A stretch of DNA of 64,000 bases from NCBI GenBank assembly GCA_026705345.1, contig JAPPAV010000012.1:1-64000 (forward strand), read 5' to 3'. This DNA is from Gammaproteobacteria bacterium. GTDB taxonomy: Bacteria > Pseudomonadota > Gammaproteobacteria > Pseudomonadales > Azotimanducaceae. The position numbers and the translations under genes were made by a program. Positions 11,153 to 35,368 of the stretch are shown one piece after another. Below the pieces are notes generated by a model. The model had not been told where the DNA came from, did not search any database, and was given only the letters and a program-made list of their open reading frames with translations. The first letter of the stretch is position 1, and each line of letters begins with the position of its first letter.

Positions 11153-11764
11153 TTAAGCGTCCTGGGCGACCCGGAATCCGGGCCGCTCCGACAGCCGGTC
11201 GTAGTATGCCTGCGTGAACGGATAGTCGTCGGTTAGCAGGCCGAAGTTGGACGCCAGCAACAGCGAGTAGCCGGTCATGATGTCGGCGATCGTGAAGGTG
11301 TTGCCGACGAGATAGTCGGATTTCGAGACGACGTCCTCGATGGCGGCGATGCAGATGCGCGACCGGGTCTTGCAGTCCTCGATGACGAAATCCACCTGGC
11401 CGCCCGCCGGGGCAACGCGGTTGTGGTTGACGATCTCGCCCAACGGACGCGCAAAGGTTGCCTCGGCGAACCAGGACCATTGCCGGCACAGGGCACTGTC
11501 CGTCGACCCCGGCGAAGGCAGCAGACGACCTTCGCCGTATTGATCGAGCAGATAGTCGCAGACCGCGCCGGACTCGAACATCGTGAAGCCGTCGATGGTC
11601 ACGGCAGGCACCTTGCCCGTCGGGCTCTTGCTGCGCCATTCCGGGCTGTTCTTGAAACGTGGCGAGAAGTCGATGACCTCGACCTCGTAGGGAATTCCAA
11701 GTTCCTCGCAGAGCCAGATCACCCGGACGCCGCGCGTGCCCTTGACGTGATAGACGGTGACCAT
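11153..11764 (-). CDS. Glutathione S-transferase family protein
   Basis: A 203-residue GST. The N-terminal thioredoxin-like domain (VTVYHVKGTRGVRVIWLCEE, then PTGKVPAVTIDGFTMFESGAV with the cis-Pro and the Glu-Ser glutathione contact) is followed by an all-helical C-terminal domain containing YLVGNTFTIADI, the conserved capping-box region. It conjugates or reduces substrates using glutathione in the cytoplasm. gshA for glutathione synthesis is in the same window at 37655. It lies 10 bases after the NhaC gene on the same strand and 17 bases before the dioxygenase gene. Confidence 0.9.
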   Translation of the reverse strand: MVTVYHVKGTRGVRVIWLCEELGIPYEVEVIDFSPRFKNSPEWRSKSPTGKVPAVTIDGFTMFESGAVCDYLLDQYGEGRLLPSPGSTDSALCRQWSWFAEATFARPLGEIVNHNRVAPAGGQVDFVIEDCKTRSRICIAAIEDVVSKSDYLVGNTFTIADIMTGYSLLLASNFGLLTDDYPFTQAYYDRLSERPGFRVAQDA

Positions 11765-11774
11765 CGGCGTCTCC

Positions 11775-13499
11775 TCAACCGGTGAAGAATGCTAGGACCG
11801 TCCAGCACACGGCAGCGAGAACAGCAGCGATGCTGGCCTGCGGAATCTGCGTCTTGACGTGGTCCATCAGATCGCACCCGGTACACATGGAACTCAACAC
11901 CGTGGTGTCGGAGATGGGCGAGCATTGGTCCCCGTAGACGCTGCCGTCCATGACCGCGGCGAAGCACAGGGTCATGAACAGTTCAGGGTGCGCCAAGCCC
12001 TGCCCGTTTGCGACTGCCCAGGCCAGCGGCATGGCGAGCGGAAACGCGACCGCGTAGGTGCCCCAACTCGTCCCGGTCGAGAAGGCGATCACCATGGTCA
12101 TCACCTGGAACAGCACCGGGAGCACGAAGTAGGGCAGGTTGTCGCCGAGTTGCTCGACCAGGAAGATGCCGCCGCCGGTCTTCTGGCTGATGCCGCCGAT
12201 GGTGATGGCGAGCAGCAGGATGACCGAGCCCAGCACCACGCCCTTGATGCCGTCGTGGTATCCGGCGATGAGATTCTTGAGCGACATGCCCTTGGCCAGC
12301 GCGATGCCGGACGCGAGGATGAGCGCGCCGCCGAACGCCCAGTGCACGTTCGGCGAGCCGAAGATGACGAAGGTGGTAATCGCAACGCCGATCAAGGTGA
12401 TCAACGGCAGGAAGAACTCGAGCACGTTCGGCGTATAGCCCTCCGGCACGTTGCTGCCCTGGAGTTCCTTGGCGCTCAAGGGTTCCGCCCCCGGCGCGTC
12501 GAGTTCCCCGGTGGACCGGGCGCGTTCCATGGCTTCGCGCATCTGCCTGCCGAGAAACGGCGGACGCTCGATGGACAGCAGGAACGTGCCGAGCACGGCG
12601 AAGATGGCGTAGAAGCAGAACGGCACGCTCTGGAAGAAAAAGCTGATCCGGTCGGATTCGGTGGCGAGGAAACTGACCCCCGCGACGAAGATGAACGCCT
12701 GCACGTAGGCCGGCCAAGCATTGAAGGCGAGCTGCGACGCGATCGGCGACGCGGTGGAGTCGACCACGTAGGACAACTCCTCGTGACTGACGCGTTCCTT
12801 GTCGGCGAGCGGTTTAACCGTCGTTCCGACCAGTACCGTGCTGACCGTACCGCCTTGGAAGAAGATGATCCCTAAGAACCATGCCACGAGCTTTGCGGTG
12901 CGCGGGCCGCGGACCACGTGCTTGGTCATCAGCTCGGCGAACGCCTGGGCGGCCCCTGTTCGCGACCAGACCCCCATGAGACCGCCGAGCAGCCACAGGT
13001 AGAGGATCAGGATGCCGGCGGCCTTGCCCGTGCCGAGGTGCGGGATCAGCACGTCGCCGGTCAGATCGTATTGGCCGAGGACCAGAGCGCCCGCGATGAT
13101 GCCGCCGAGTAGGGCGGTGATGGGTTCCCGGGTCACCCAGCAGAGCAGGACCGCGACGACCGCGGGAAGCAGGGACCACCAACCCCAGTGGGGTTGTGCG
13201 AGTAGCTGAAAGTAGGCGGGCTCGTCACCGCTTTGGTCGACAACGAACTGTTCCTCGACGGGTGGCGGTTCACCCGACTCGGCGATCCGGACGGTATCAA
13301 GTGCTGTGTCCGCCATGGGAATGGCGTTGAAATGGACGCGATCGCCTTCAAGGACGTAGTACGTGCCCAGGGCATCGGTGTGGGTGTCGAGCTGGATCTT
13401 CTCCACCGTCCAGGTCGGGGAAACCGTTACGCCCACGATCGCGGCGACGCCTAGGGCGGCGACGAATAGGGCGAACGTGCGGAATCGGGCGAGGGTCAT
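11775..13499 (-). CDS. Na+/H+ antiporter, NhaC family
   Basis: A polytopic membrane protein of about 574 residues, with one membrane segment and an extracytoplasmic stretch of about 130 residues before the transporter core. Core motifs include [34 protein letters not shown], the SPIASQLAF loop, [16 protein letters not shown] and [20 protein letters not shown], the last two being characteristic of NhaC antiporters. It would exchange Na+ for H+ (or dicarboxylates in some relatives). The ATG at 13499 is preferred to the GTG at 13511. The F420 operon ends 94 bases upstream on the same strand. Confidence 0.88.
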
Positions 13500-21401: not shown

Positions 21402-21824
21402 TCACACTTCGGCCCAGGGATCGATGACCTCTGCGCCGGTCGTCTCGAAATGGACCACGTTGCCCGTGACCACCGTCATGCCGTGCACCATCGCTGTCGC
21501 GGCGATAAGCGCGTCCCGTTCCGAACGGGGGTCGGGCACATGCAACCTGGCGCACTTCAGGGCGACCGCGGAGTCGACCGGGAGCGTGCGCTCCTCGAAC
21601 TCGGGCAATACATGCCCGTCCATCCAGGTACGCAGGCGCTTTCCCTGTTCGGCGTCGCGTCGTTCCACGCGCAGGATTCCGATTTCCAACTCCATCAGGG
21701 TCAGCGCCGAGATGTAGAAGCTCGAGGCGTCGCTGCCGGAGACCCACTCGGCGACACGCTGGTTGGCCTTGCCGTCGCCGAGTTTGCGCAACTCGGAGAT
21801 CACGTTGGTGTCAAGCAGGAACAT
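21402..21824 (-). CDS. PIN-domain toxin, VapC/FitB family
   Basis: A 140-residue PIN-domain ribonuclease. LLDTNVISELRK supplies the first catalytic Asp, ISALTLMELEIGI the Glu, and RDALIAATAM and TVVTGNVVHF the later acidic and Asn sites. VapC-type toxins cleave tRNA or rRNA when their antitoxin decays. The start overlaps the stop of the antitoxin gene, the classic coupled arrangement. Confidence 0.92.
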   Translation of the reverse strand: MFLLDTNVISELRKLGDGKANQRVAEWVSGSDASSFYISALTLMELEIGILRVERRDAEQGKRLRTWMDGHVLPEFEERTLPVDSAVALKCARLHVPDPRSERDALIAATAMVHGMTVVTGNVVHFETTGAEVIDPWAEV

Positions 21825-22078
21825 CAGGACAGGTCGGGCGAAGCGACTCCGATGCTCAAACGCCCCGGCTCGAAGTCGATTTCCGCCAATCCCGGCATCG
21901 ACAGTGCCTCTACCAGACTACGGCCTTTCGCCGCCAGCCTCCGGTAGTCCTCGATGGTGAGCAGAACATGCGCGGGCTTGCCGCGGTCGGTAATGAAGAC
22001 CGGACCCGATTTCGCGGCTTTCTTCGCGCCTCCGACGTCCTGATTGAGTTCGCGGCTTGTGACGGTTTTGACGGACAT
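21824..22078 (-). CDS. Phd/YefM-family antitoxin
   Basis: An 84-residue antitoxin. VTSRELNQDVGGAKKAAKSGPV is the Phd/YefM DNA-binding fold, and FITDRGKPAHVLLTIEDYRRL is its conserved second half. The C-terminal tail would wrap the toxin. It precedes and overlaps the PIN toxin gene. A 10-base-arm palindrome lies just upstream of the start, consistent with autorepression by the toxin-antitoxin complex. Confidence 0.92.
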   Translation of the reverse strand: MSVKTVTSRELNQDVGGAKKAAKSGPVFITDRGKPAHVLLTIEDYRRLAAKGRSLVEALSMPGLAEIDFEPGRLSIGVASPDLS

Positions 22079-22267: not shown

Positions 22268-24424
<2,157 letters not shown>

Positions 24425-24548
24425 TGATTGGCCGGACACCGGACTCGGAACGTCGATGCCGGAAGTGTAGTCCGCACATACCGTTGCGTTTTTTTGATCA
24501 CTATGGTTAAAGTTGCGCATTAATCTGTCGCCGGGCAGGGAAACGACC

Positions 24549-24932
24549 ATGTCGACCGTCAAACTCGCACGCCGCGAGAGAGAGGCGATGGAGATCCTGT
24601 ACCGCCAAGGCCCGAGCACCGTCGCCGAGTTGCAGGACCATCTCGGTGGATCGTATTCGGCTGCCCGCGCAGTGCTTTCGCGGCTAGCTCGGCGCGGTTT
24701 GGCCAACCACCGGTATGAAGGCCCGAGATACGTCTACGAACCGGCCCAGGACGTTTCCATCGCTGCGGAGTCCGCGTTGAAGGATCTGGTAGCCACCTTT
24801 TTCGGAGGTAGCAATACCGCGGTCATGACGGCGCTCCTCGGCATGTGCAAGGACACCTTGGACGACACGGAACTGAGTCGCTTGGAGGAACTGGTCGCCT
24901 CGGCACGGAAGTCCAAGCAAATCGATGCCTGA
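24549..24932 (+). CDS. BlaI/MecI/CopY-family transcriptional repressor
   Basis: A 127-residue winged-helix repressor. LARREREAMEILYRQGPSTVAELQDHL and YSAARAVLSRLARRGLANHR form the helix-turn-helix and wing of the BlaI/MecI family. The C-terminal helices (ALKDLVATFFGG, LSRLEELVASARK) are the dimer region. GGGA lies about 8 bases before ATG 24549. Classical BlaI is relieved by the BlaR1 (M56) sensor protease, and none is present here. Instead its stop codon overlaps the start of the first giant membrane protein by 8 bases, so it is the first gene of, and probable regulator for, the cassette 24549-35060. Confidence 0.88.
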   Translation: MSTVKLARREREAMEILYRQGPSTVAELQDHLGGSYSAARAVLSRLARRGLANHRYEGPRYVYEPAQDVSIAAESALKDLVATFFGGSNTAVMTALLGMCKDTLDDTELSRLEELVASARKSKQIDA

Positions 24933-27900
24933 GCCGAGCGGAGGGCACGTCAATCCGGTCCAGGTCGCCTTGGCGGCAGCAACCGCGGAGTTGCGCATCG
25001 CGCGACGAATGGTCAGGACCTGGGTGTTTGCCGCCCTCGCCGTCGGCGTGGGATTGGCCGTCTACCATACCGGGTCGATCCAACACACCCAGATGGGCTT
25101 GGCGGCGCCCCCCCGGTTTGCGCTGCCCGGCCTCGGTATTCTCGTTCTGTGGGTCCTGGTTGCCGGAACCGTGCTCCTGGCGTTCGACATTCCGGGTCGG
25201 GATGCACGTGAACGTTTGGCAGAGGCTTTGGACAGTCGTCCACCGTCGAACCTCGCCCTCTTGGCAGGCAGGCTGTCGGCTGTCGCGCTCGTCGCGTGGT
25301 TACCGTTGGTGTTGCTAGCACTGGTACTCCAGGTCGGCGGGCTAGTGTTCGACCATCTGGATGCCCGAGCGGGGGTTCCTGTCGAACCCGTTTCGCTGTT
25401 GACCTTCATGTTTGTCGATGCACCTGCCGCGCTCTCGCTCTGGGGTGCCCTGGTCGTGCTGCTGGCCGCTGTCCTACGCAATCGGCTTGTCGTCGCCCTG
25501 GTGGCGTTCGGTCTGCTGGCCACCCATGTCTGGGCGGTGTTGAACACACCCCTGTACCTGTTGCCGATCGTGTCGGGTGTCACCAACTTGGGTTTGCCGG
25601 GATCCGAGATCCTGCCCCGCACCGCATCAGGGGTTGACCTTGCCCAACGGCTGTCGGTGCTGGTCCTGGCGGCGGGTTTGCTTGCCACTGCTGCCGCGTT
25701 GCTTCCCCGCCGCGATGCGACTTCACGAGTGTCTCGCCTCGGTGCGGGCATGGCATTGCTCGTCCTCGGTGCTGCTGGAATCGGCGGTCTGTTTCGGTGG
25801 GTCGAAGCCGAACGGTTGGAACGGGTCGCGTGGGCCGAGGCCCACGAATCTGCTCTCGATGCGCCACGTCCCGACGTCGAACAGCTTTCGGGAACCATCG
25901 ACGTGGATCCGGAGCGCCAGCTCGGAATCGACGTGGTTCTCGATCTACGCACGCCGGAGACTGCGTTCGATGAACTTCGGTTCAGTCTCAACCCGTCGAT
26001 GGCGGTGGAGTCGGTTGGCGTGGACGGTACCGAGGCGCCGTTTCACCATGAACTGGGAATCCTGGCTGTGACCCCGCCTGCGGGCTTGGCGCCCGGCGCA
26101 TCGGCCCAGCTTTCCATCCGGGCCTCCGGTGTTCCCGATCCGCGTTTCGGCTATCTCGACAGTTCCGTCTGGGCGATGGACGAGACGCTTCTGGGGATGC
26201 CCATCGCCCTGCGGGGCGACGTGGCGTCGATCTACCACCCGAGTTTCGTCGCGCTGACTCCCGCGGTCGCTTGGCTGCCGATTTCCGGTGCCAGCTTCGC
26301 CATCGACGATCCCAGCCGTCGTGCGCCCGACTTCCACGACATCGATCTCCTAGTGCGGATTCCCGATGGCTGGCATGCCGCGGGCCCCGGGCGCTTGGAG
26401 GCTGACGACGGAGTCCGATTTCGGCCAAGCGTACCGCTGCCGCAGTTCCCACTGATCGCGGCGCCTTTCGAACGTCGGGCCCTGACGATGGGAGACATCG
26501 AATACGAACTGCTGATCCATCCGGAGCACCTGACCAACGTCGACTATTTCTCCGAAGAAGAACGTAGGGAGGCGACCCTTCGCCATCTCGAACAGCGGCT
26601 TCCATTCAGGTCGGGACCAAAGGTCCCCTACCCGCATGCCTTGTTCAGTATCGTGGAGGTCCCCGGCCAGCTTCGTCGCTACGGCGGGGGGCGAATCATG
26701 GATACGATACAAGCGCTGCCGGGCATACAGATGCTGTCCGAGCACGGCTTCCCGACCCGCCGTTTCGCTGCCGAAACTCCGTTCCAGGGAATGCCTGACG
26801 AGATGTGGTTTCAACAGCAGCTCTTCTTTAGCGAAAACGGGCCGCACCGGGTCCCCGCTGCCGCAGGGCGGTCACTAAACATGGGGCTGTATCTCACGAG
26901 TGCGTCCGGTGACGGTGCGATCGCGGCCAACTACCTCCTCGAGTCCCTGACTTCCTTTCTCAGCTATGAACGTCGCACGGTGGCACCGGCACACTGGCTT
27001 CAGATTGGTCTCGCACCCGGCCTGCCACTGTCCGACGGGGTGCTGAACCGACTGATGGGGACGGCGACCTTCAGTTTCGGGTGGTACCAGTTCTTCGGGA
27101 TGAGCCTCGAGGACAAGAGCGCCGAGTTCTCGTTCACCGGCGTCGACGCGATGACAACCACCGAGGGCGTCGACATCCTGATCCACAAGGGCAACCTCAT
27201 CGCGCTTGCGGTCCTGGGTCTGATGGAACGAACGAAAGTGGCCGACTTCCTCGCCCTGATGCGCAACCGGTACGGCGGCGGAACGTTCACTGTGGACGAG
27301 TTCATCGCCGCCATGTCGGAGACCGACCCCGCCATGGCGCCGTACATCGGTCACTTCATGCGCGAAGACAGCCTGCCGGGGTTTCTCGTGTCGGATGTGC
27401 GGGCGTTTAGGTTGCCGGACGACGACGGCGGCGCACCTCGCTACCAGGTCGCCGTCCATGTACGAAACGACGAGCCTGTACCGGGAGTTGCTGGTCTGAT
27501 TGTACGGGAACCTCGAGCTGACGGCTTCGGCGGGCTGTACCACCACGCGCCATTCGTCCATGTTCCGGGTAATGGTTCTCGCGAGTTCGGCGTGTTTACG
27601 AATGTACCGCCCGACGACGTGCGCTTGGAGACCTACCTGTCGCAAAACGCCCGCATCATGCGGCTGCCGCTACCGAAGGTTGACCCGGAAACAATCGTCC
27701 CGGCGGAGCCGTTTTACGGCGCGCGGCCCAGCACCTGGCTGCCCCCGGATCTCGGCATCGTCGTGGACGATCTCGACCCGGGCTATTCCTATGTCTCGCC
27801 GCCTCCGAGAGGGTTCCGGCTGCGTTTTGGCGAGGAAGGCGACGATGCTGAAATGCCCGAGTACAACTACCTCGTCCCTGTCCCGGGTTGGCATCGCCAT

Positions 27901-28305
27901 GGCGACCCGCTGACCTTGAGTTGGGGCAAGTACCGCCGGACGCTTACCCGCATTCTCGCGGGCACCGGCGACGGCAGCGCCACGTTCGCGGCGGCACTGC
28001 CCTCCGCGGGCACGTGGCGGCTCTACTACCACCTGCCGGGCGCGTCGACGAGCGGATACACCGGGCGCGCGGGCTTCCGGAATCCGGGCGAGGACTTCGG
28101 CACGTACAACCTCGAGATCGTGGCGGGCGAGGTGCGCGTCCCCGTCGCGTACGATGCCCGAATGGCAGTATCCGGCTGGAACGATATCGGCACCTTCGAA
28201 CTCCCGGCCGGCCCGGTGAGTGTCACGGTATCCGATGCCACCGATGGCCAGGTCATAGTCGCGGATGCGGTTCGATGGCAGGCAGTGGACGATCCCAGCC
28301 GCTAG
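24925..28305 (+). CDS. Giant membrane protein: ABC-2-like TM region, inactive M1-like domain, golvesin-like C-terminus (paralogue A)
   Basis: A 1,126-residue protein. About seven membrane helices occupy residues 30-295 in an ABC-2-permease-like pattern. The large remainder is then probably periplasmic. The region around residue 577 (FSIVEVPGQLRRYGGGR) and the later block near 750 (ILIHKGNLIALAVLGLM, then EFIAAMSETDPAMAPYI) match the shape of ABC permease/M1-aminopeptidase fusions, but no HEXXH zinc motif is present. The last 120 residues (GTWRLYYHLPG to VSGWNDIGTFELPAGPV and VIVADAVRW) resemble the golvesin/xanthan-lyase C-terminal domain, a probable carbohydrate- or surface-binding module. 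No ATPase gene is adjacent. It is followed by paralogue B, overlapping by 31 bases. Confidence 0.7.
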   Translation: MPEPSGGHVNPVQVALAAATAELRIARRMVRTWVFAALAVGVGLAVYHTGSIQHTQMGLAAPPRFALPGLGILVLWVLVAGTVLLAFDIPGRDARERLAEALDSRPPSNLALLAGRLSAVALVAWLPLVLLALVLQVGGLVFDHLDARAGVPVEPVSLLTFMFVDAPAALSLWGALVVLLAAVLRNRLVVALVAFGLLATHVWAVLNTPLYLLPIVSGVTNLGLPGSEILPRTASGVDLAQRLSVLVLAAGLLATAAALLPRRDATSRVSRLGAGMALLVLGAAGIGGLFRWVEAERLERVAWAEAHESALDAPRPDVEQLSGTIDVDPERQLGIDVVLDLRTPETAFDELRFSLNPSMAVESVGVDGTEAPFHHELGILAVTPPAGLAPGASAQLSIRASGVPDPRFGYLDSSVWAMDETLLGMPIALRGDVASIYHPSFVALTPAVAWLPISGASFAIDDPSRRAPDFHDIDLLVRIPDGWHAAGPGRLEADDGVRFRPSVPLPQFPLIAAPFERRALTMGDIEYELLIHPEHLTNVDYFSEEERREATLRHLEQRLPFRSGPKVPYPHALFSIVEVPGQLRRYGGGRIMDTIQALPGIQMLSEHGFPTRRFAAETPFQGMPDEMWFQQQLFFSENGPHRVPAAAGRSLNMGLYLTSASGDGAIAANYLLESLTSFLSYERRTVAPAHWLQIGLAPGLPLSDGVLNRLMGTATFSFGWYQFFGMSLEDKSAEFSFTGVDAMTTTEGVDILIHKGNLIALAVLGLMERTKVADFLALMRNRYGGGTFTVDEFIAAMSETDPAMAPYIGHFMREDSLPGFLVSDVRAFRLPDDDGGAPRYQVAVHVRNDEPVPGVAGLIVREPRADGFGGLYHHAPFVHVPGNGSREFGVFTNVPPDDVRLETYLSQNARIMRLPLPKVDPETIVPAEPFYGARPSTWLPPDLGIVVDDLDPGYSYVSPPPRGFRLRFGEEGDDAEMPEYNYLVPVPGWHRHGDPLTLSWGKYRRTLTRILAGTGDGSATFAAALPSAGTWRLYYHLPGASTSGYTGRAGFRNPGEDFGTYNLEIVAGEVRVPVAYDARMAVSGWNDIGTFELPAGPVSVTVSDATDGQVIVADAVRWQAVDDPSR

Positions 28306-31300
28306 CGCACGTACGCGCCGTTGCCGCAGCCGAGTTTCGTCTGGCGCGGCGGATGGTGCGAACGTGGGTGTTCGCATTCATCGCCGTTGCGGGGGGATTG
28401 TTCACCTATCACCTCTGGTCGGGACCGGCAACGTGGGGTGCGACCGCGTCACCCCGCTTTGCACTGCCGGGGCTCGGCATGCTGTCGCTGTGGGTATTGC
28501 TGGTCGGCCTGGTGTTCCTCGCCTTCGACATCCGTGCCCGGGACGAGCGCGAGCGCATCGTGGAAGTGCTGGATGCCCGGCCGCTCCGGAACATCGCGGT
28601 CCTGGTCGGGCGCTTGGTCGCCGTCGTCGCCATCGCCTGGCTTCCCCTCGTCGTCCTCGCGATACTGCTACAAGCCAGTGGAATGGTCGTCGACTACCAG
28701 AACTGGCCCGTCGGCGTCCCGGCGGAACCGGTTTCGCTCGCCACCTTCGTGTTTCTCGACGCACCGCCGGCGCTCGTCTTCTGGTGCGCCCTGGTGATGC
28801 TGCTGGCGGCGGCGTTGCGAAACCGCCTCGCGGTGTCGCTCATCGCGCTTTCGCTCATCGCCGTCGGGTTCTGGGCGCTCTTCAACACGCCGCTCTACCT
28901 GCTGCCCGTTGTTTCGGGGATTGCAAACCTCGGGCTGCCGGGTTCCGACATCCTGCCCCGCGGTCCTTCCCTCGAAGACGTCGTGCAGCGCCTTTGCGTG
29001 CTCACTCTGGGGGCTGGATTGGTGACCGTCGCGGCCGCACTGCTGCCTCGGCGCGACTCGCGGTCCAGAACGCCGTACCTGGCCTGGGGCGCGGCCCTCG
29101 TGGTGTTGGGCGGTGCGGGTATCGCGGGATTGGTCGTGCACGCGGTGTCATTGCGCGCGGAACGCGTCGTTTGGGCGGAGGTCCATTCGGCATTGCAGAC
29201 GTCGGCTCGGCCGGACCTGGAGCGAATCTCCGGGAACGTGGTCATCGATCCGGGTCGGGAACTTGCGATTGCCCTCGACCTCGAGATGCGTGCGCCGGAT
29301 GCGGCGCCGTTGGCGGACTTTCTGTTCAGCCTGAACCCGGGGATGCGGGTCGAGTCGGTGCAGATGGATGGCACCGGGCTCGAGTTTGAACACGATAGCG
29401 GGGTCCTCAGAGTTCGACCGGGAAGACCGCTGTCCCCGGGTGAGCGGGCCGACATGTCGATCCGGGCCCGCGGCATCCCCGACCCGCGCTTCGGTTATCT
29501 CGACAGTGCCGTTTGGGCGTTGGACGAGACGCTGCTCGGCATGCCCATCGTGCTCCTGGGCGAGCAGGCGTCGCTCTTCGACAGCCGCTATGTGGCGCTC
29601 GCACCGGCCGTGTGCTGGCTGCCGAAGTCGGGCGCGAACTTCGGCGTCGAGAATCCCGCCGTGCAGCCGCCGGACTCTCACCACATCGACCTGACCGTCG
29701 AGATTCCGGACGGCTGGCACGTGGTCGGGCCGGGGCGCGAAGTGCGGGATGGTGGCCTTCGGTTTCGTCCTGGCGTGGCGTTGGCCGAATTTCCGCTGAT
29801 CGCGGCCCCCCTCGAGCGAAGGGCGCTCCCACTCGACGATGTCGAATACGAACTGCTGATCCACCGCAAGCACCTCGCCAATGTCGAGTACTTCTCGGCG
29901 GAAGAGAAGCTTGAGACCGTCGCGAACTACATCAGATCGAACCTGCGTGCCATTCCGGGCCTCCGCTATCCGCACCGGGTGATGAGCCTCGTCGAGGTGC
30001 CGGCCCAGCTACGGCGTTATCGCGGGGGCCGGTTGTTGGACGCGGTCCAGGCGTGGCCCGGCATTCAGATGCTGCCGGAGCACGGCCTGCCGACCCGGCG
30101 TCTAGAGGCGCGGCCACGTTACGGATCGCCGACGGACGACATGGTGCTGCAGATGGATCTGGCCTATGCCGGCCGGGGTCCGCATGGCGTTCCGCTCCGT
30201 GCCGGGGCATCGCGCAACCTGTTGCCGTTTTTGACCAGTGCTACCGGCGAAGGTGCGTTCGCGGCCAACTACCTGCTGCAGTCGTTGACCGCTTGGCGAT
30301 TCGGAAATCAACGCACCGTGGCGCCGGGGCACTGGCTGCAACTCGGACTTGCGCCTGGTTCGCCGTTTCCGCTCCGGGTGATGCACCGCCTCACGGGAAC
30401 CGCGACCTTCAGCTTCAACTGGTACCTGTTCTTCCCGATGGCGTTGGAGGACCGCAGCGCCGGGTATTCGTTCACGAACTTCGATCCGAACGAATCCACC
30501 GCACACGCCGACGTGTTGATCCACAAGGGCAACCTCATCGCGTTGGCGGTGCAAGGGCTCATGGGGCGCGAGAAGGTCGGCGAGTTCCTGGCCCTGATGC
30601 GCGAACGGCATGCGGGCTCCACCTTCGGCCTCGACGATTTCATCGCGGCGATGACGGAGACGGACCCGGCAATGGCACCCTACATCGAGCACTTCATGCG
30701 CGAGTCGACGTTGCCGGGCTTCCTGGCTTCCGACCTCCGCGCCTACCGGATAGCCGACGACGAGAACGGCCAGCCCCGCTATCAACTCGCGGTCCACATC
30801 CGCAACGACGAGCCGGTTCCCGGTGTCGCCGCCATCGCGTTCTGGTCGTCGTTGTATCAGTGGGGCGATTTCGTCCACGTGCCTGGAAAGACCTCGCTGG
30901 AACTCGGCGTGGTGGCATCGGAACCGCCGGCTGAAGTGCGCCTCGAGACCTACTTGTCCCAGAACCGGCGCATCATGCGCCTGGCTCTCCCGCCGATCGA
31001 TCCCGAGACGACGCTGCCGGGAGAGCCGTTCAACGGATCACGTCACAGCGATTGGACGCCGCAGGATTCGGGCATCGTGGTGGACGACCTCGACCCTGGC
31101 TTCGCCACGGTATCGCCGCCCAGGCGGGGCTTTCGCATGAGCTTCGGCGATGAAGAGGACGATACCGACGGTGGCGTACCCGAGTACTACTCGGATGCCG
31201 GTGCGCGCCTTTGGCGGCGACAGGAGAACCCCGACACGGTGAGTTGGGGTAAATACCGGCGCACCCTGACGCGAATCCAGGCGGGGGACGGCGAGGGCCG

Positions 31301-31664
31301 GGCATCGTTCCGCGCGGAACTGCCGACACCGGGGACGTGGCGGTTGTCCTACCACCTGCCCGGATCGTCCGCGAGCGAAGGCAACCGCTTCCAGTTGCCG
31401 TCGGGGTGGGAGTCTGGCGACCGCTTCGGGACACTCGACTTCGAGATAGTTGCCGGGGCGAGCCGAACGCCCTTCATCTTTGACGCAAGCACGGCGGTTT
31501 CGGGTTGGAACGATCTGGGTACCTTCGACCTTGCCGCCGGTCCGGTAACCGTCGTGGTCTCGGACGATACGACGGGTGACATCGTCGTAGCTGACGCGAT
31601 CCGCTGGGCGCCGGTGTCCAACGCGGGCACCAGGCCAGTCGATGGGTCGACCACCGGTTCTTGA
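28275..31664 (+). CDS. Giant membrane protein, paralogue B of 24925-28305
   Basis: A 1,129-residue tandem paralogue with the same layout: an N-terminal membrane region (MVRTWVFAFIAVAGGLFTYH onward, about seven helices), an M1-like middle without HEXXH (SLVEVPAQLRRYRGGR; VLIHKGNLIALAVQGLM), and a golvesin-like C-terminus (VSGWNDLGTFDLAAGPV, VVADAIRW). By eye, more than half of aligned positions are identical to paralogue A, with the best-kept stretches in the M1-like region (RFGYLDSAVWALDETLLGMP). ATG 28275 lies inside the end of paralogue A, implying coupling. Two diverged copies retained side by side suggest a heteromeric complex. Function unknown. Confidence 0.7.
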   Translation: MAGSGRSQPLAHVRAVAAAEFRLARRMVRTWVFAFIAVAGGLFTYHLWSGPATWGATASPRFALPGLGMLSLWVLLVGLVFLAFDIRARDERERIVEVLDARPLRNIAVLVGRLVAVVAIAWLPLVVLAILLQASGMVVDYQNWPVGVPAEPVSLATFVFLDAPPALVFWCALVMLLAAALRNRLAVSLIALSLIAVGFWALFNTPLYLLPVVSGIANLGLPGSDILPRGPSLEDVVQRLCVLTLGAGLVTVAAALLPRRDSRSRTPYLAWGAALVVLGGAGIAGLVVHAVSLRAERVVWAEVHSALQTSARPDLERISGNVVIDPGRELAIALDLEMRAPDAAPLADFLFSLNPGMRVESVQMDGTGLEFEHDSGVLRVRPGRPLSPGERADMSIRARGIPDPRFGYLDSAVWALDETLLGMPIVLLGEQASLFDSRYVALAPAVCWLPKSGANFGVENPAVQPPDSHHIDLTVEIPDGWHVVGPGREVRDGGLRFRPGVALAEFPLIAAPLERRALPLDDVEYELLIHRKHLANVEYFSAEEKLETVANYIRSNLRAIPGLRYPHRVMSLVEVPAQLRRYRGGRLLDAVQAWPGIQMLPEHGLPTRRLEARPRYGSPTDDMVLQMDLAYAGRGPHGVPLRAGASRNLLPFLTSATGEGAFAANYLLQSLTAWRFGNQRTVAPGHWLQLGLAPGSPFPLRVMHRLTGTATFSFNWYLFFPMALEDRSAGYSFTNFDPNESTAHADVLIHKGNLIALAVQGLMGREKVGEFLALMRERHAGSTFGLDDFIAAMTETDPAMAPYIEHFMRESTLPGFLASDLRAYRIADDENGQPRYQLAVHIRNDEPVPGVAAIAFWSSLYQWGDFVHVPGKTSLELGVVASEPPAEVRLETYLSQNRRIMRLALPPIDPETTLPGEPFNGSRHSDWTPQDSGIVVDDLDPGFATVSPPRRGFRMSFGDEEDDTDGGVPEYYSDAGARLWRRQENPDTVSWGKYRRTLTRIQAGDGEGRASFRAELPTPGTWRLSYHLPGSSASEGNRFQLPSGWESGDRFGTLDFEIVAGASRTPFIFDASTAVSGWNDLGTFDLAAGPVTVVVSDDTTGDIVVADAIRWAPVSNAGTRPVDGSTTGS

Positions 31665-31726
31665 GGCGGGCGAGTAGATCGCCCCTGTTATGCTCGGTCC
31701 GAACTCGGACCAGCGAGTCGTTGTCG

Positions 31727-33502
31727 ATGTCCGTTTCCAATCGCGAACACAAGGGAGCTAGACGTCTGTCGCGTCTGTCGATGGTCCTGATCGTCGCTGC
31801 GTCGGTGGTGGTTGCCGCTGTCGTGGTCTGGCGGGCGGATCGGCCGGAACCCGGAACATCCCGCACGCAATCCGAGATTTCGGCGGGTGAGTCGACGGCA
31901 CTGCAAACTGTGCCGTCGGCCGAGGCGACCTTGGCCGAGATTGCCGAAATCACGGACGACTTCTCGCGCAATGCCGCGATGTATCGCTTGGCTAGCGGCG
32001 CAACGGGGCAGCAGGTCGAGGAGTGGCTGGACGAGGTGGAGACCTTGCCACGAAGCCCGCACCGCTACGACGTCGCCCGGGTGCTCTACATGCGATTCGC
32101 TGCGCTCGACCCGGAAGCCGCGCTCGAACACGCCTTTGAGGGCGCGACCAAGCCGGTCTGGCTCGAGGCCATCTTTGGAACGTGGGCCCAAGTTGATCCC
32201 GATGCGGCGGTTGCTCGGGCAGCCGAGCTCGATTCCTCCGCGAAGGCTGCGGCAGCACGTGCGCTGCTCCAACTCGGTATTCCGGTGGACGAGTTACGCT
32301 CCGTGGCCGAGCGTCTCGACGCCAACCTGAACCACGATCAGTACCGCGAGATCGAGAGGATCATTGGCGTGTCGGTACCAACGCCCAGCGTGCGGCTGCT
32401 GGCGGCGACCCAGGCGAGCAAGCTCGGCAGACGGGACGACGAATCACACGCGGACGCCTGGTGCCGGGCCATTGCGGTCGAAGACGGCCTGGTGCGGCAG
32501 ATCCTCGCCGAACGGATCGCCCTCGACTGGGCGTTGGACAGCCCCACTGATGCCATGGGGGCCGTGAAGGCTTGGGCCAACAACGACATCCACGTGACCG
32601 TGAGGAGCAACGGTTTCAGTACCAGGCTGATTCGACACCGAATTGGTTCCCAGATCGTTTGGAATTGGGCCGATGAGGAACCCCTCGAGGCGTTCGCCTG
32701 GCTGATGGCGCAGGAAATAGCCGACATCCGGAGCCACATTGGGGCCGTGATGAGTCGATTGACCCAACACGCACCGGAAGAGGCAATCGCCCGCCTCGGC
32801 GATATCCCTGCTTCGCACAGGCCAAGCGCCGCCTACGCCGTGCTTGGGGTCTTGGCGGGACGGGACATCGATCAGGCGATGAGTTTCTTTGCATCGTTGG
32901 ACATCTCCTGGAAGGTGGACAACACCCACGCACTCCGACGGGCACTCCTCGCCAACCGTTCCGCCAAGCAAGCCCTCGATTGGGCCGTGTCGGTGGACCA
33001 GCGGATTCGCGCCGACGAGGTGGCGGCCGTGATCCGCGATGTGCACGGGAAGGATCACACCGAAGCATTTCGGTTGCTGGAGTCGCTCGACGAACCGGGC
33101 CTGCGGATCCGAGCGGCGGACGAGGTGGTGCGAGACGAAGCACGGCGTGATGCCGAGGAGGCGCTGGCCTGGGCTCGAGACTTCAAACCCGAGGCCGGGC
33201 GATCCAACCTGATCGTCAAGGTGTTCGACACTTGGGCGGGCCGGGATCCCGCGACCGCTTGTCGAGAGTTGCTCGACATGCGTGGCGGGCCTGTGCGGGA
33301 TGAAGCGGCCGCGACCATGATGCCCGACGTGGTTCGGCGCGATGCCCACCTGGCGGAACGTCTTTTTGACGCGATCGAGTCGCCGGATCAGCAAGCCAAG
33401 GCCGCCCAACCCCTGCATCGGCATTTCAGAGACATCGAGCCTGATCGTCGCAAGGCCGAACGGTACGGCAAGTACCTTCCGGACGATGATGGCAATGCGT
33501 AG
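31727..33502 (+). CDS. Membrane-anchored helical-repeat protein (paralogue 1)
   Basis: A 591-residue protein with a single N-terminal membrane anchor (residues about 18-37, LSMVLIVAASVVVAAVVVW). A long all-helical part follows, built from irregular repeats of 30-40 residues with a recurring 'Asp-Pro-x-x-Ala' turn (AALDPEAALEHAF, QVDPDAAVARAAEL, SPTDAMGAVKAW). This suggests a TPR/HEAT-like solenoid in the periplasm. The start is uncertain because no Shine-Dalgarno is clear. It lies 62 bases after paralogue B, and its end overlaps the next gene, which is its paralogue. No known family was recognised. Confidence 0.65.
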   Translation: MSVSNREHKGARRLSRLSMVLIVAASVVVAAVVVWRADRPEPGTSRTQSEISAGESTALQTVPSAEATLAEIAEITDDFSRNAAMYRLASGATGQQVEEWLDEVETLPRSPHRYDVARVLYMRFAALDPEAALEHAFEGATKPVWLEAIFGTWAQVDPDAAVARAAELDSSAKAAAARALLQLGIPVDELRSVAERLDANLNHDQYREIERIIGVSVPTPSVRLLAATQASKLGRRDDESHADAWCRAIAVEDGLVRQILAERIALDWALDSPTDAMGAVKAWANNDIHVTVRSNGFSTRLIRHRIGSQIVWNWADEEPLEAFAWLMAQEIADIRSHIGAVMSRLTQHAPEEAIARLGDIPASHRPSAAYAVLGVLAGRDIDQAMSFFASLDISWKVDNTHALRRALLANRSAKQALDWAVSVDQRIRADEVAAVIRDVHGKDHTEAFRLLESLDEPGLRIRAADEVVRDEARRDAEEALAWARDFKPEAGRSNLIVKVFDTWAGRDPATACRELLDMRGGPVRDEAAATMMPDVVRRDAHLAERLFDAIESPDQQAKAAQPLHRHFRDIEPDRRKAERYGKYLPDDDGNA

Positions 33503-35060
33503 GAACCTCTTGTCCACCTTAGTGGGATTCGCGGTAGGCCTTGGCGGATCCCCAGCCGTAGCGGCCGAAGCGCCGGGTGGGGATGCGGATACCGACCGGA
33601 CATTGGCTGGAATTGCGAGCGTGGCGGATGGATTCGACCGCAACGCGGCGTTGTATCGATTCCTCGTCAAAGCGGATCGCGGTCGCATCGAACGATTGTT
33701 GGCCGAGGTTGCCGACATGCCTGCCGCGCCACATCGCGACGACGTCGCGCGCGTACTCTACATTCGCTTCGCTTCCGTTGATCCAGCGGCGGCAGCGGAT
33801 CACGCGGTGCGTACGCTGGCAAACCCCGAAGCCGTCTCGGCGGTGTTCCGGGCCTGGGCCCACGCGGATCTCAACTCAGCCGTCGCGCGCGCGGCGGAAC
33901 TGCCGACAGGCCCCAGAGCCGACGCGGCACGGGCGATCCTGCAACTCGACCTTCCCGCCACCCAGCTACGGTCGATTGCCGAGGGCCTCGGTGCGTGGTT
34001 AGCTGATTTGGAGATCTCGAAGCCGGTAGTCCCCACTCGAGATGAGGCCTACGGTGCGGCACTGGCGAGGCTCGGCGCCATCGACGATCCCGACTCGCGC
34101 TGGGAGGAGGTCGTGCTGTTGGCGTCGGACTGGTCAACCGCGGACCCGACCGGCGCGTTGACGGCGATCATCGGCTGGGATGGAGAAGCGAGCGTCAGGG
34201 ACTCGATGCTCTACCAGGTCTTGGAGGCATGGGCCAAGGTGAGACCACGAGCCGCCACGGATTGGCTGCTCGCCCAGGACACCGGCGAGTTGCTCGACCT
34301 GGTGTTCCCCGCATTCCTCAGTCTTGCCAGGACGGATCCAAACCATGCCGAGGCGCTGGTCGAGGCGCTTCCCGCAGAGCCGGCGAGGCGTCAGGCCCGA
34401 ATCGGCGTTCTCAAGGCGTTCCTGGATCAGGGTGACCTGGACCGCGCGGTGTCGGCATTCGCGGAACTCGACCAGCGTGATCAGCCGGTCGTCATGGGCG
34501 AGGTCGGTGCCGGATTGGTGCGTGCCGACCCGGAACGGGCACTGGAATGGCTAATGCGTCTCGACGAGACGCTTCGAAGAAACTCCTACGACTGGATGAT
34601 CGCGGAGATGTACGGGGTGGACGCGTCGGTGACCAAGCAACTGATACAAGGCATGGCCGACCCGGAAATGCGGATCGACGCCGCTATGGCAGTTGCCCAG
34701 TGGGAGATGGGAGAACCCGACGACGCGTTGGCTTGGGCCGAGTCGCTCGGCACCGCAGAGCAATACGCGCCGGTGGTGGCGTACATGTTCCGCGACTGGT
34801 TCCGCGACGATGCGCCTCGCGCGACGACCGCGCTAATGGGATACCGGCCCGGTCTGGCGAGAGACCGTGCGCTTCGCAGCGTGATTGCTGCCCGTTTAGC
34901 GGCTCACGACACCGTGGCGGCGGAGCGGTTCTTCGAAGCCATCGACTCGCCTGACGAACGCGCCGCCGCCGCCGAGAGACTGCAGCGTTACTACACGGAA
35001 ACGGACCCCAACGAGCGCAAGGCGGCGCTGTTCAGCGAATTGGCGACACGAGCTGAATGA
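33495..35060 (+). CDS. Exported helical-repeat protein (paralogue 2)
   Basis: A 521-residue protein with a cleavable-looking signal peptide (MRRNLLSTLVGFAVGL, ending AVAAEAP). The helical-repeat body matches the previous gene most clearly in DGFDRNAALYRFLVKAD, MPAAPHRDDVARVLYIRFAS and the C-terminal ERFFEAIDSPDERAAAAERL. Repeats again carry Asp-Pro-x-x-Ala turns (RADPERALEWLMR). Possible starts are ATG 33486, 33489 or 33495, all overlapping the preceding stop. It is the last gene of the five-gene cassette; rpmE follows 90 bases later. The role is unknown, possibly a periplasmic scaffold for the giant membrane proteins. Confidence 0.65.
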   Translation: MRRNLLSTLVGFAVGLGGSPAVAAEAPGGDADTDRTLAGIASVADGFDRNAALYRFLVKADRGRIERLLAEVADMPAAPHRDDVARVLYIRFASVDPAAAADHAVRTLANPEAVSAVFRAWAHADLNSAVARAAELPTGPRADAARAILQLDLPATQLRSIAEGLGAWLADLEISKPVVPTRDEAYGAALARLGAIDDPDSRWEEVVLLASDWSTADPTGALTAIIGWDGEASVRDSMLYQVLEAWAKVRPRAATDWLLAQDTGELLDLVFPAFLSLARTDPNHAEALVEALPAEPARRQARIGVLKAFLDQGDLDRAVSAFAELDQRDQPVVMGEVGAGLVRADPERALEWLMRLDETLRRNSYDWMIAEMYGVDASVTKQLIQGMADPEMRIDAAMAVAQWEMGEPDDALAWAESLGTAEQYAPVVAYMFRDWFRDDAPRATTALMGYRPGLARDRALRSVIAARLAAHDTVAAERFFEAIDSPDERAAAAERLQRYYTETDPNERKAALFSELATRAE

Positions 35061-35149: not shown

Positions 35150-35368
35150 ATGAAGCCCGGCATACACCCGGAATACGGCGAGATCACGGCCACATGCAGT
35201 TGTGGCAACGTGATCAAGACGCGTTCGACCTTGAACCGGGACATCCACCTCGACGTTTGCGCCGCCTGCCACCCGTTCTACACCGGCAAGCAGAAGATCG
35301 TCGACAGCGGCGGTCGCGTCGAGCGATTCCGGCGCAGGTTCGGCGAAGGTTCCCTGACGGCGAGCTAA
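35150..35368 (+). CDS. rpmE: 50S ribosomal protein L31, zinc-binding form
   Basis: A 72-residue L31. [20 protein letters not shown] is the standard opening, and the CSC and CAAC motifs make it the zinc-containing (C+) type. [29 protein letters not shown] is the conserved core. It is part of the large ribosomal subunit near the central protuberance. Its ancestral neighbour priA is 10.7 kb away, on the other side of the cassette. Confidence 0.97.

What the first reader, a model, noticed from the sequence alone, without database searches (positions are those of the whole stretch)
24549..35060. Five-gene cassette between priA and rpmE: a candidate new regulated envelope system
In E. coli priA and rpmE are adjacent and divergent. 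Here they keep that orientation (22268-24424 minus, 35150-35368 plus) but are split by five same-strand genes. These encode a BlaI/MecI-type repressor, two paralogous membrane proteins of about 1,130 residues and two paralogous exported helical-repeat proteins. Overlaps (8 bases, 31 bases, and 8-17 bases depending on the start used) imply one coupled operon. Base composition is like the flanks, so it is not a very recent arrival. No BlaR1-type sensor, beta-lactamase or ATPase is present, so the repressor must answer to something else. That the set works as one complex is inference.
Basis: partly seen in the sequence, partly recalled or inferred. Interest (0 to 1): 0.78.

Follow-up and report, generated by a model that had tools for sequence, protein, structure and literature searches.

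The report
Repressor operon that lost its sensor
Five genes between two housekeeping genes form an operon whose repressor once had a membrane sensor partner that appears to have been deleted here; the operon encodes exported and membrane proteins that exist in many separate copies across this group of bacteria, so it looks like an unusual local assembly rather than a wholly new conserved system.

Summary
The five genes are real, on one strand, and overlap as described. The reading is only partly right. (1) The BlaI-type repressor had a sensor: in orthologous priA-rpmE loci of two relatives an M56/BlaR1-type gene sits between repressor and first membrane gene; two others keep remnants; here it is gone and the membrane gene starts where the sensor did. 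No close copy of that sensor was found elsewhere in the genome, and each of its four clear M56 genes has a BlaI-like neighbour. (2) The membrane proteins are ABC-2-type permeases joined to an M1-aminopeptidase-like region without the zinc motif and a golvesin C-terminal domain. Some relatives sit with an ABC ATPase, an adaptor and RND pumps; this genome has 16-17 copies, all but the C112 pair without such an ATPase beside them. (3) The exported proteins belong to an alpha-solenoid family with separate copies. In the fetched stretches both families meet only at this locus; all five genes are whole in 2 of 6 orthologous loci. Most likely: a lineage-made operon under a BlaI repressor that lost its off-switch. 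New variant of a known kind.

The parts
24484..24519 (+). Putative promoter/operator block upstream of R, aligned without gaps to the block upstream of R-like genes in R-M56 loci elsewhere
   Evidence: conserved in all 5 cassettes that keep an intact R (G011 with a few changes); 25 of 36 identities to the G004 and G011 R-M56 upstream regions (dinucleotide shuffles mean 18.3 and 18.5, max 21 and 22, 0 of 60 reach), 22 of 36 to G021 (0 of 60 reach), 21 of 36 to G008 (2 of 60 reach). My dyad scan found none in the window copy
24549..24932 (+). R: BlaI/MecI-type (Penicillinase_R) repressor, 127 aa, with no M56 partner beside it
   Evidence: PF03965 E=2.8e-16; orthologs 77-89% in G002, G004, G006, G011; pairwise dN/dS 0.10-0.21 in 10 pairs
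24925..24960 (+). Inferred scar of the sensor-gene deletion: M1 starts where relatives have the M56 start codon (ATGCCTGAG here; ATGCTTGAG in G002, G003, G004, G006; ATGCTTGAA in G011), with the 8-base overlap with R kept
24925..28305 (+). M1: seven hydrophobic stretches in the first 290 residues (ABC-2-like), M1-peptidase-like region without HExxH, golvesin C-terminal domain (aa 1001-1117)
28275..31664 (+). M2: paralogue of M1 (59%), same architecture
31661..33502 (+). H1: exported or membrane-anchored protein (hydrophobic stretch aa 39-57 of the longest ORF), solenoid family; start codon uncertain
33495..35060 (+). H2: exported alpha-solenoid (31 helices of 4 or more residues predicted, mean pLDDT 83.5); alternative start 33486
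22268..24424 (-). Flank: priA
   Evidence: hmmscan of the longer ORF 22268-24706; start at 24424 used
35150..35368 (+). Flank: rpmE

Best explanation
The locus is a repressor-first, overlapping gene set put together in one lineage of its genus. Supported by comparison: its ancestor had a BlaI/BlaR1-type switch (R plus an M56 membrane protease-sensor overlapping R by 8 bases) ahead of two members, without an ATPase neighbour, of an ABC-2 permease / M1-peptidase-like / golvesin family and, in 5 of 6 copies, a pair of exported alpha-solenoid proteins. In the window's genome the sensor gene has been deleted cleanly, so that M1 starts where the sensor did and still overlaps R. R and its upstream block are still conserved. 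Inferred mechanism: R binds its own promoter and holds the operon at a low or set level; the normal release, cleavage of R by the M56 protease on an outside signal, is gone, so the operon is locked down unless another protease or anti-repressor removes R. Inferred role of the products: M1 and M2 are membrane-anchored periplasmic binding or scaffold proteins (the peptidase site is lost and no ATPase is encoded nearby), and H1 and H2 are periplasmic or surface docking proteins; their joint action is not shown.
For: An intact M56 gene lies between R and M1 in G004 (403 aa, PF05569 3.5e-24, HEMGH) and one interrupted only by a 100-N assembly gap in G006; shortened forms lie in G002 and G011; G000 and G003 have none. 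R's five nearest relatives (56-61%) each precede an M56 gene, with the 8-base overlap measured in L146, L149 and L150. The upstream 36-base block matches that of four of them tested. R dN/dS is 0.10-0.21 in 10 pairs, against 0.14-0.18 for PriA in 10 pairs. The own genome has no close M56: best hit 32%, E=4.8e-6. Of five PF05569 matches four pass the family cut-off, and each of these four has a BlaI-like neighbour. M family: Golvesin_C in 31 of 33 members and ABC2_membrane_3 in 15 of 33 (E up to 1); hhalign over 710 columns, E=6.3e-9, probability 96%, to an ABC-2 permease-M1 peptidase fusion that keeps HEVAH and lies beside an ABC ATPase. ATPase, M, MFP and RND together in 7 of 42 M-bearing stretches, the ATPase alone in two more. 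The tree puts the 7 cassette M rows in a supported clade of 16 whose other members have no neighbour related to the family's ATPase.
Against: No expression, binding or protein data. Pairwise dN/dS cannot date the sensor loss: if it is recent, R may not yet have decayed. A misassembly at the junction cannot be excluded without reads, though three relatives show M56 shortened or gone too. My dyad scan found no dyad in the window's upstream block, and the match to one of four R-M56 upstream regions was reached by 2 of 60 shuffles. The AlphaFold model of M1 failed (mean pLDDT 43.6), so the M1-peptidase-like region rests on profile comparison only; the comparison with the genome's plain M1 peptidase is weak (25% probability, 68 columns) and no member has a PF01433 hit. 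In G003, H1 and H2 survive with R and M1 broken; in G006, R, M56, M1 and M2 survive without H, so a joint function of M and H is doubtful.
Confidence: 0.62

Rival explanations
1. R is still switched, by a different trigger: one of the genome's other M56 proteases, or a soluble anti-repressor of the MecR2 kind, releases it in trans.
For: R and the upstream block are conserved after sensor loss; the genome holds four M56 genes over the family cut-off; MecR2 is a known precedent (PMC3406092, abstract and section list seen).
Against: Each of the four M56 genes over the cut-off has a BlaI-like neighbour, and they are distant from the lost sensor: the three matched at E up to 0.01 share 26-32% with it.
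Confidence: 0.25
2. One reading: one co-adapted complex of R, M1, M2, H1 and H2, regulated by something other than BlaR1.
For: Overlaps suggest one coupled operon; all five genes are whole in G000 and G011.
Against: The sensor is present or a remnant in 4 of 6 orthologous loci; M and H live apart elsewhere in the fetched stretches; relatives lack M2 (G004), H (G006), or whole R and M1 (G003).
Confidence: 0.12
3. The locus is decaying: an accessory cassette under weak selection, now silent in this genome and on its way out.
For: Four of six orthologous loci have a broken or missing M gene or no H pair; the sensor is shortened or gone in four of six.
Against: In the window all five frames are open over 10.5 kb; dN/dS of M1 is 0.19-0.23 (6 pairs) and of H 0.27-0.36 (20 pairs), well below 1.
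Confidence: 0.2
4. M1 and M2 are working ABC exporters that borrow the ATPase encoded at C112.
For: The genome has one close relative of the family's ATPase (73%, C112:26759-27679), beside two M genes; the next matches are 36-42%; ABC-2 hits in 15 of 33 members.
Against: One ATPase would have to serve 16-17 diverged permeases; cassette Ms form a clade without ATPase-linked members.
Confidence: 0.2

Closest known systems
BlaI-BlaR1 / MecI-MecR1 switch (PF03965 + PF05569)
   Same: R is a Penicillinase_R protein; in relatives an M56 protease gene overlaps its end; a conserved block lies where a self-regulating operator would
   Different: No M56 partner beside R in this genome; the operon holds no beta-lactamase or PBP gene; the lost sensor (G004 copy) has a short tail with a CCTCH motif and no Pfam hit beyond M56
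ABC-2 permease fused to M1 peptidase (for example L195:5196-8795 beside an ABC ATPase)
   Same: TM region and soluble region align over 710 columns
   Different: M lacks HExxH at the peptidase site, has a golvesin C-terminal domain, is greatly multiplied and mostly has no ATPase neighbour
ATPase - M - HlyD/MFP - RND loci of the same family (L168, L169, L172, L174, L175, L176, L033)
   Same: Same M family; likely the ancestral setting
   Different: The window cassette has none of these partners
HEAT/TPR-type alpha-solenoids
   Same: H2 is predicted as a regular helical solenoid
   Different: No PDB match at E 0.001 or better; the 50 rows listed are generic solenoids with TM-scores of 0.34 or less

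Membership tests
BlaI/MecI repressor | Penicillinase_R domain over most of the protein | tested here: met
   PF03965 E=2.8e-16, profile 3-114 of 115
BlaI/MecI repressor | Operator dyad at its own promoter | tested here: inconclusive
   36-base block shared with R-M56 loci, but my dyad scan found none in the window copy; binding not testable
BlaI-BlaR1 switch | Adjacent M56 protease-sensor with HExxH | tested here: not met
   Absent in the window; intact in G004, present with an N gap in G006, remnants in G002 and G011, none in G003
BlaI-BlaR1 switch | Cleavage of the repressor by the M56 protease on signal | not testable with these tools
   Needs experiment; the mechanism is as described in PMC7593790 (passages seen)
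ABC-2 exporter | ABC-2 membrane domain | tested here: inconclusive
   ABC2_membrane_3 in 15 of 33 members up to E 1 (best 8.1e-6; M2 0.045, under the gathering score; M1 no hit); but hhalign to an ABC-2/M1 fusion spans this region, E=6.3e-9
ABC-2 exporter | Cognate ABC ATPase in the operon | tested here: not met
   None in the cassette; one close ATPase in the genome, at C112
M1 aminopeptidase | HExxH zinc motif and GxMEN | tested here: not met
   HExxH string in 2 of 33 members, both in the linker just after the TM region (rows L006 and L029); G[AG]MEN in 0 of 33
M1 aminopeptidase | Homology to M1 peptidases | tested here: met
   hhalign 130 columns to the L197 M1 peptidase E=1.4e-7, 710 columns to the ABC-2/M1 fusion; against this, no PF01433 hit in 33 members and a weak match to the genome's own M1 peptidase
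Golvesin C-terminal domain proteins | PF25275 | tested here: met
   31 of 33 members; M1 32.5 bits and M2 31.8 bits against a cut-off of 31.6
Known anti-phage defence | PADLOC model match | tested here: not met
   No hit for M1, M2, H1, H2 at E up to 0.01; R matches parts of Csa3 and SoFic models weakly (best 5.7e-5)

The most novel reading that the evidence does not exclude
A permease-peptidase fusion family lost its peptidase site and mostly its ATPase neighbour, carries a golvesin domain and multiplied to about 16-20 copies in several genomes of one bacterial genus, becoming a non-transporting surface or periplasmic binding repertoire. One branch was put under BlaI/BlaR1-type control together with exported solenoid partners, and the sensor was then shortened or deleted in at least three distinct ways while the repressor was mostly kept, so that loss of inducibility itself is being selected.
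Probability: 0.25. Interest if true: 0.65.

Novelty: new variant of a known kind. Interest (0 to 1): 0.45.

Why it matters
It gives a natural series (sensor intact, shortened, gone) for asking what a BlaI repressor does after its BlaR1 partner is deleted. It also brings out a taxon-limited, strongly expanded family of ABC-2/M1-like proteins that have lost the catalytic zinc motif and mostly lack the motor ATPase beside them. As a cautionary case it shows that 'no sensor here' can be a local deletion, not a new signalling principle.

Tried and rejected
Foldseek of H2 against the PDB gave only generic solenoids. PDB sequence searches gave nothing solid for either family: two hits for M (E 0.16 Paenibacillus xanthan lyase, E 0.7 aminopeptidase N) and three for H, all E 0.28 or more. 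NCBIfam gave no family for M1 or H1, and only below-cut-off hits for R, M2 and H2. PADLOC gave no defence reading. The idea that an M56 without a repressor in this genome is R's lost partner was tested and rejected for the four M56 genes over the family cut-off, since each has a BlaI-like neighbour. The fifth, sub-threshold match (C10:92030, E 0.008) was not followed. Literature: searches for golvesin, BlaI with M56 and ABC transporter or MacB, ABC permease with M1 aminopeptidase, orphan or truncated BlaI/BlaR1 (10 of 162 papers listed) and sponge MAGs (8 of 159 listed) showed no title or abstract start that describes this cassette or the M family; only open-licence PMC papers were searched, and listings alone were seen except for PMC7593790 (passages) and PMC3406092 (abstract and section list).

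Corrected on checking: my first wording made all of R's near relatives part of full R-M56-MacB-adaptor operons. One search shows an M56 gene after R in 5 of 5, a MacB-type gene beside the pair in 4 of 5 (downstream in L146, L148 and L150; divergent in L149 and also L150), none in L147 (only a 33% ABC match on the other strand), and the adaptor in L146 only.

Rows dropped: ORF calls in scripts are greedy longest-ORF calls and sometimes chose antisense frames; counts were therefore taken from tblastn maps. In one search, 86 stretches over 8 kb were compared, of which L009-L012 repeat L109, L108, L111 and L107. The tree used 38 rows, not all M genes. One search listed only the best matches.
Full report
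Observation. R is a Penicillinase_R protein; M1 and M2 end in a golvesin domain; H1 and H2 have no Pfam family above its cut-off. Hydropathy gives seven candidate TM stretches in the first 290 residues of M1 (an eighth, weak one at 749-767), seven in M2, and one N-terminal hydrophobic stretch in each H protein. G+C does not stand out.

Where it occurs. The genome is G000 (5.07 Mb, 151 contigs). By equal contig lengths, relatives G004, G006, G011 and G003 are the records VXYL01000016.1, JAGWBM010000064.1, JAPPGK010000056.1 and JAPPND010000054.1, titled as Gammaproteobacteria or Pseudomonadales metagenome-assembled genomes. That such isolate names point to sponge samples is recalled, not from a call. 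Of 35 relatives with rpmE I fetched the rpmE neighbourhood of 20: 10 have priA and rpmE adjacent (102-308 bases apart), 6 have cassette genes between them (G002, G003, G004, G006, G011; G009 has a single M gene only), 3 have no priA match in the stretch, and 1 is cut by the contig end. The empty state is therefore common in the family.

The missing sensor. In G004 a 403-aa M56 protein (PF05569 3.5e-24, HEMGH motif) sits between R and M1, starting in an 8-base overlap with the end of R; the M1 start there overlaps the M56 stop. G006 has the same gene with a 100-N gap. G002 keeps its N-terminal part and, in another frame, its C-terminal part; G011 keeps an in-frame 124-aa remnant of the first 18 residues plus the C-terminal tail. 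G003 keeps only a few codons that resemble the M56 start and the last 24 residues of R. In the window the M56 gene is gone, and M1 starts at the position of the former M56 start (ATGCCTGAG against ATGCTTGAG), with the 8-base overlap preserved; that this start codon is the old M56 one is inference. So the sensor is intact or near intact in 2 of 6, shortened in 2 of 6 and gone in 2 of 6. The direction is loss: remnants remain, and R's five nearest relatives elsewhere (56-61%) each precede an M56 gene. A MacB-type ABC gene lies beside that pair in 4 of the 5, and an adaptor gene in 1.

What R can still do. R is 77-89% conserved among the intact copies, with pairwise dN/dS 0.10-0.21 (10 pairs; PriA 0.14-0.18, 10 pairs; M1 0.19-0.23, 6 pairs; M2 0.21 and M56 0.36, one pair each; H 0.27-0.36, 20 pairs). 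The block 24484-24519 is conserved in all five cassettes with intact R and aligns without gaps to the corresponding block of four R-M56 loci: 25, 25, 22 and 21 of 36 identities, with 0, 0, 0 and 2 of 60 shuffles reaching these values. The putative recognition helix of R is nearly the same in both groups (alignment; the assignment of the helix is recalled). My dyad scan found none in the window copy. In this genome no M56 is close to the lost one (best E 4.8e-6); of five PF05569 matches four pass the cut-off and each has a BlaI-like neighbour. The most likely state is a repressor without its normal release. The BlaR1/BlaI mechanism used as the model is from passages of PMC7593790; a second kind of anti-repressor, MecR2, is known (PMC3406092, abstract and section list seen), so release by another route stays open.

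The M family. The genome holds 16-17 M genes or gene ends (19 matches, some of them pieces). All 16 genus members searched, G000 included, have at least one, and 19 of 38 genomes in the relatives set do. In a sample of the class, 2 of 369 genomes, one of them G000, have a match at 1e-20. In a phylum sample, 4 of 398, one of them G000, have one at 1e-5, the other three only partial. Those three tell what M is: one is an ABC-2 permease fused to an M1 peptidase with HEVAH, beside an ABC ATPase, aligned over 710 columns (E 6.3e-9); the other two are M1 peptidases, one of them compared by hhalign (E 1.4e-7). Against this, the genome's own M1 peptidase matches only weakly and no M member has a PF01433 hit. 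M has lost the zinc motif: HExxH occurs as a string in 2 of 33 members, both in the linker after the TM region. Of 42 fetched M-bearing stretches over 8 kb, 7 show ATPase, M, MFP and RND together, 2 more show the ATPase only, 4 show only distant ABC hits (29-36%), and 29, including the window, show none. In the tree the seven cassette rows sit in a supported clade of 16 rows whose other nine have no neighbour related to the family's ATPase; the nine ATPase-linked rows lie outside it. So the cassette's ancestor probably had no ATPase neighbour already.

The H family. H2 folds as an alpha-solenoid in the prediction (mean pLDDT 83.5). H matches occur in 16 of 38 genomes of the relatives set, 13 of them among the 16 genus members, often as H1-H2 pairs at other sites. 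In 369 genomes of the class, 3 including G000 match the H profile at 1e-10. Of 21 H-bearing stretches, the 8 that also hold M are all copies of the priA-rpmE locus.

Is it one system? As an operon, probably. As a conserved functional unit, no: G004 lacks M2, G006 lacks H (a short H1 trace remains), G003 has R and M1 broken and no M56 or M2 but keeps H, and G002 has deleted M pieces; only G000 and G011 have all five genes whole, and no copy has all six with the sensor intact. The break in G006's M2 coincides with an assembly gap and is not counted as damage.

Verdict. A lineage-made operon combining parts from two expanded, otherwise separate families under a BlaI-type repressor whose sensor has been deleted here. 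New variant of a known kind, moderate interest: the parts are unusual, the function is unknown, and the supposed novelty of sensor-free control is a local deletion.

Noticed in passing
L146:8905-10566, L149:240-1928, L150:8204-9895: The M56 antirepressors beside R-like genes carry a C-terminal MacB_PCD domain (PF12704; 3.1e-18, 2.9e-18, 7.6e-20; 3 of 3 scanned), the same periplasmic domain as the MacB-type transporters encoded beside them: a sensor that may mimic the transporter's own substrate domain.
   Followed up: partly
L155:5456-7189 (G000:C130): Another M56 protein of this genome carries TonB_C domains (PF03544 1.2e-27, two stretches) after its M56 domain.
   Followed up: no
L108:4243-5454, L109 about 11709-12908, remnants in L106 and L111: The lost sensor's tail keeps a GWHA(S/N)(L/M)DS..L..TGCCTCH stretch in all four copies or remnants; CCTCH fits CxxCH, a possible metal or heme site.
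   Followed up: no
window 21402-22078, minus: Phd/YefM antitoxin and PIN toxin pair beside priA.
   Followed up: no
L175, L176, L174, L169, L168, L172, L033: ABC ATPase - permease/M1-like - adaptor - RND gene order (two RND genes in six of the seven slices), which would couple an ABC-2-like permease to RND pumps.
   Followed up: partly
L036/L037 (G000:C66) and L179 (G004:C41): Four M genes in tandem in two species.
   Followed up: no
L112, L113, L121: G013, G012 and G021 have rpmE without a priA match in the fetched stretch.
   Followed up: no
L126, L143, L144: H1-H2 pairs lie near ORFs that look like phytanoyl-CoA dioxygenases by their first residues (label recalled, not scanned).
   Followed up: no
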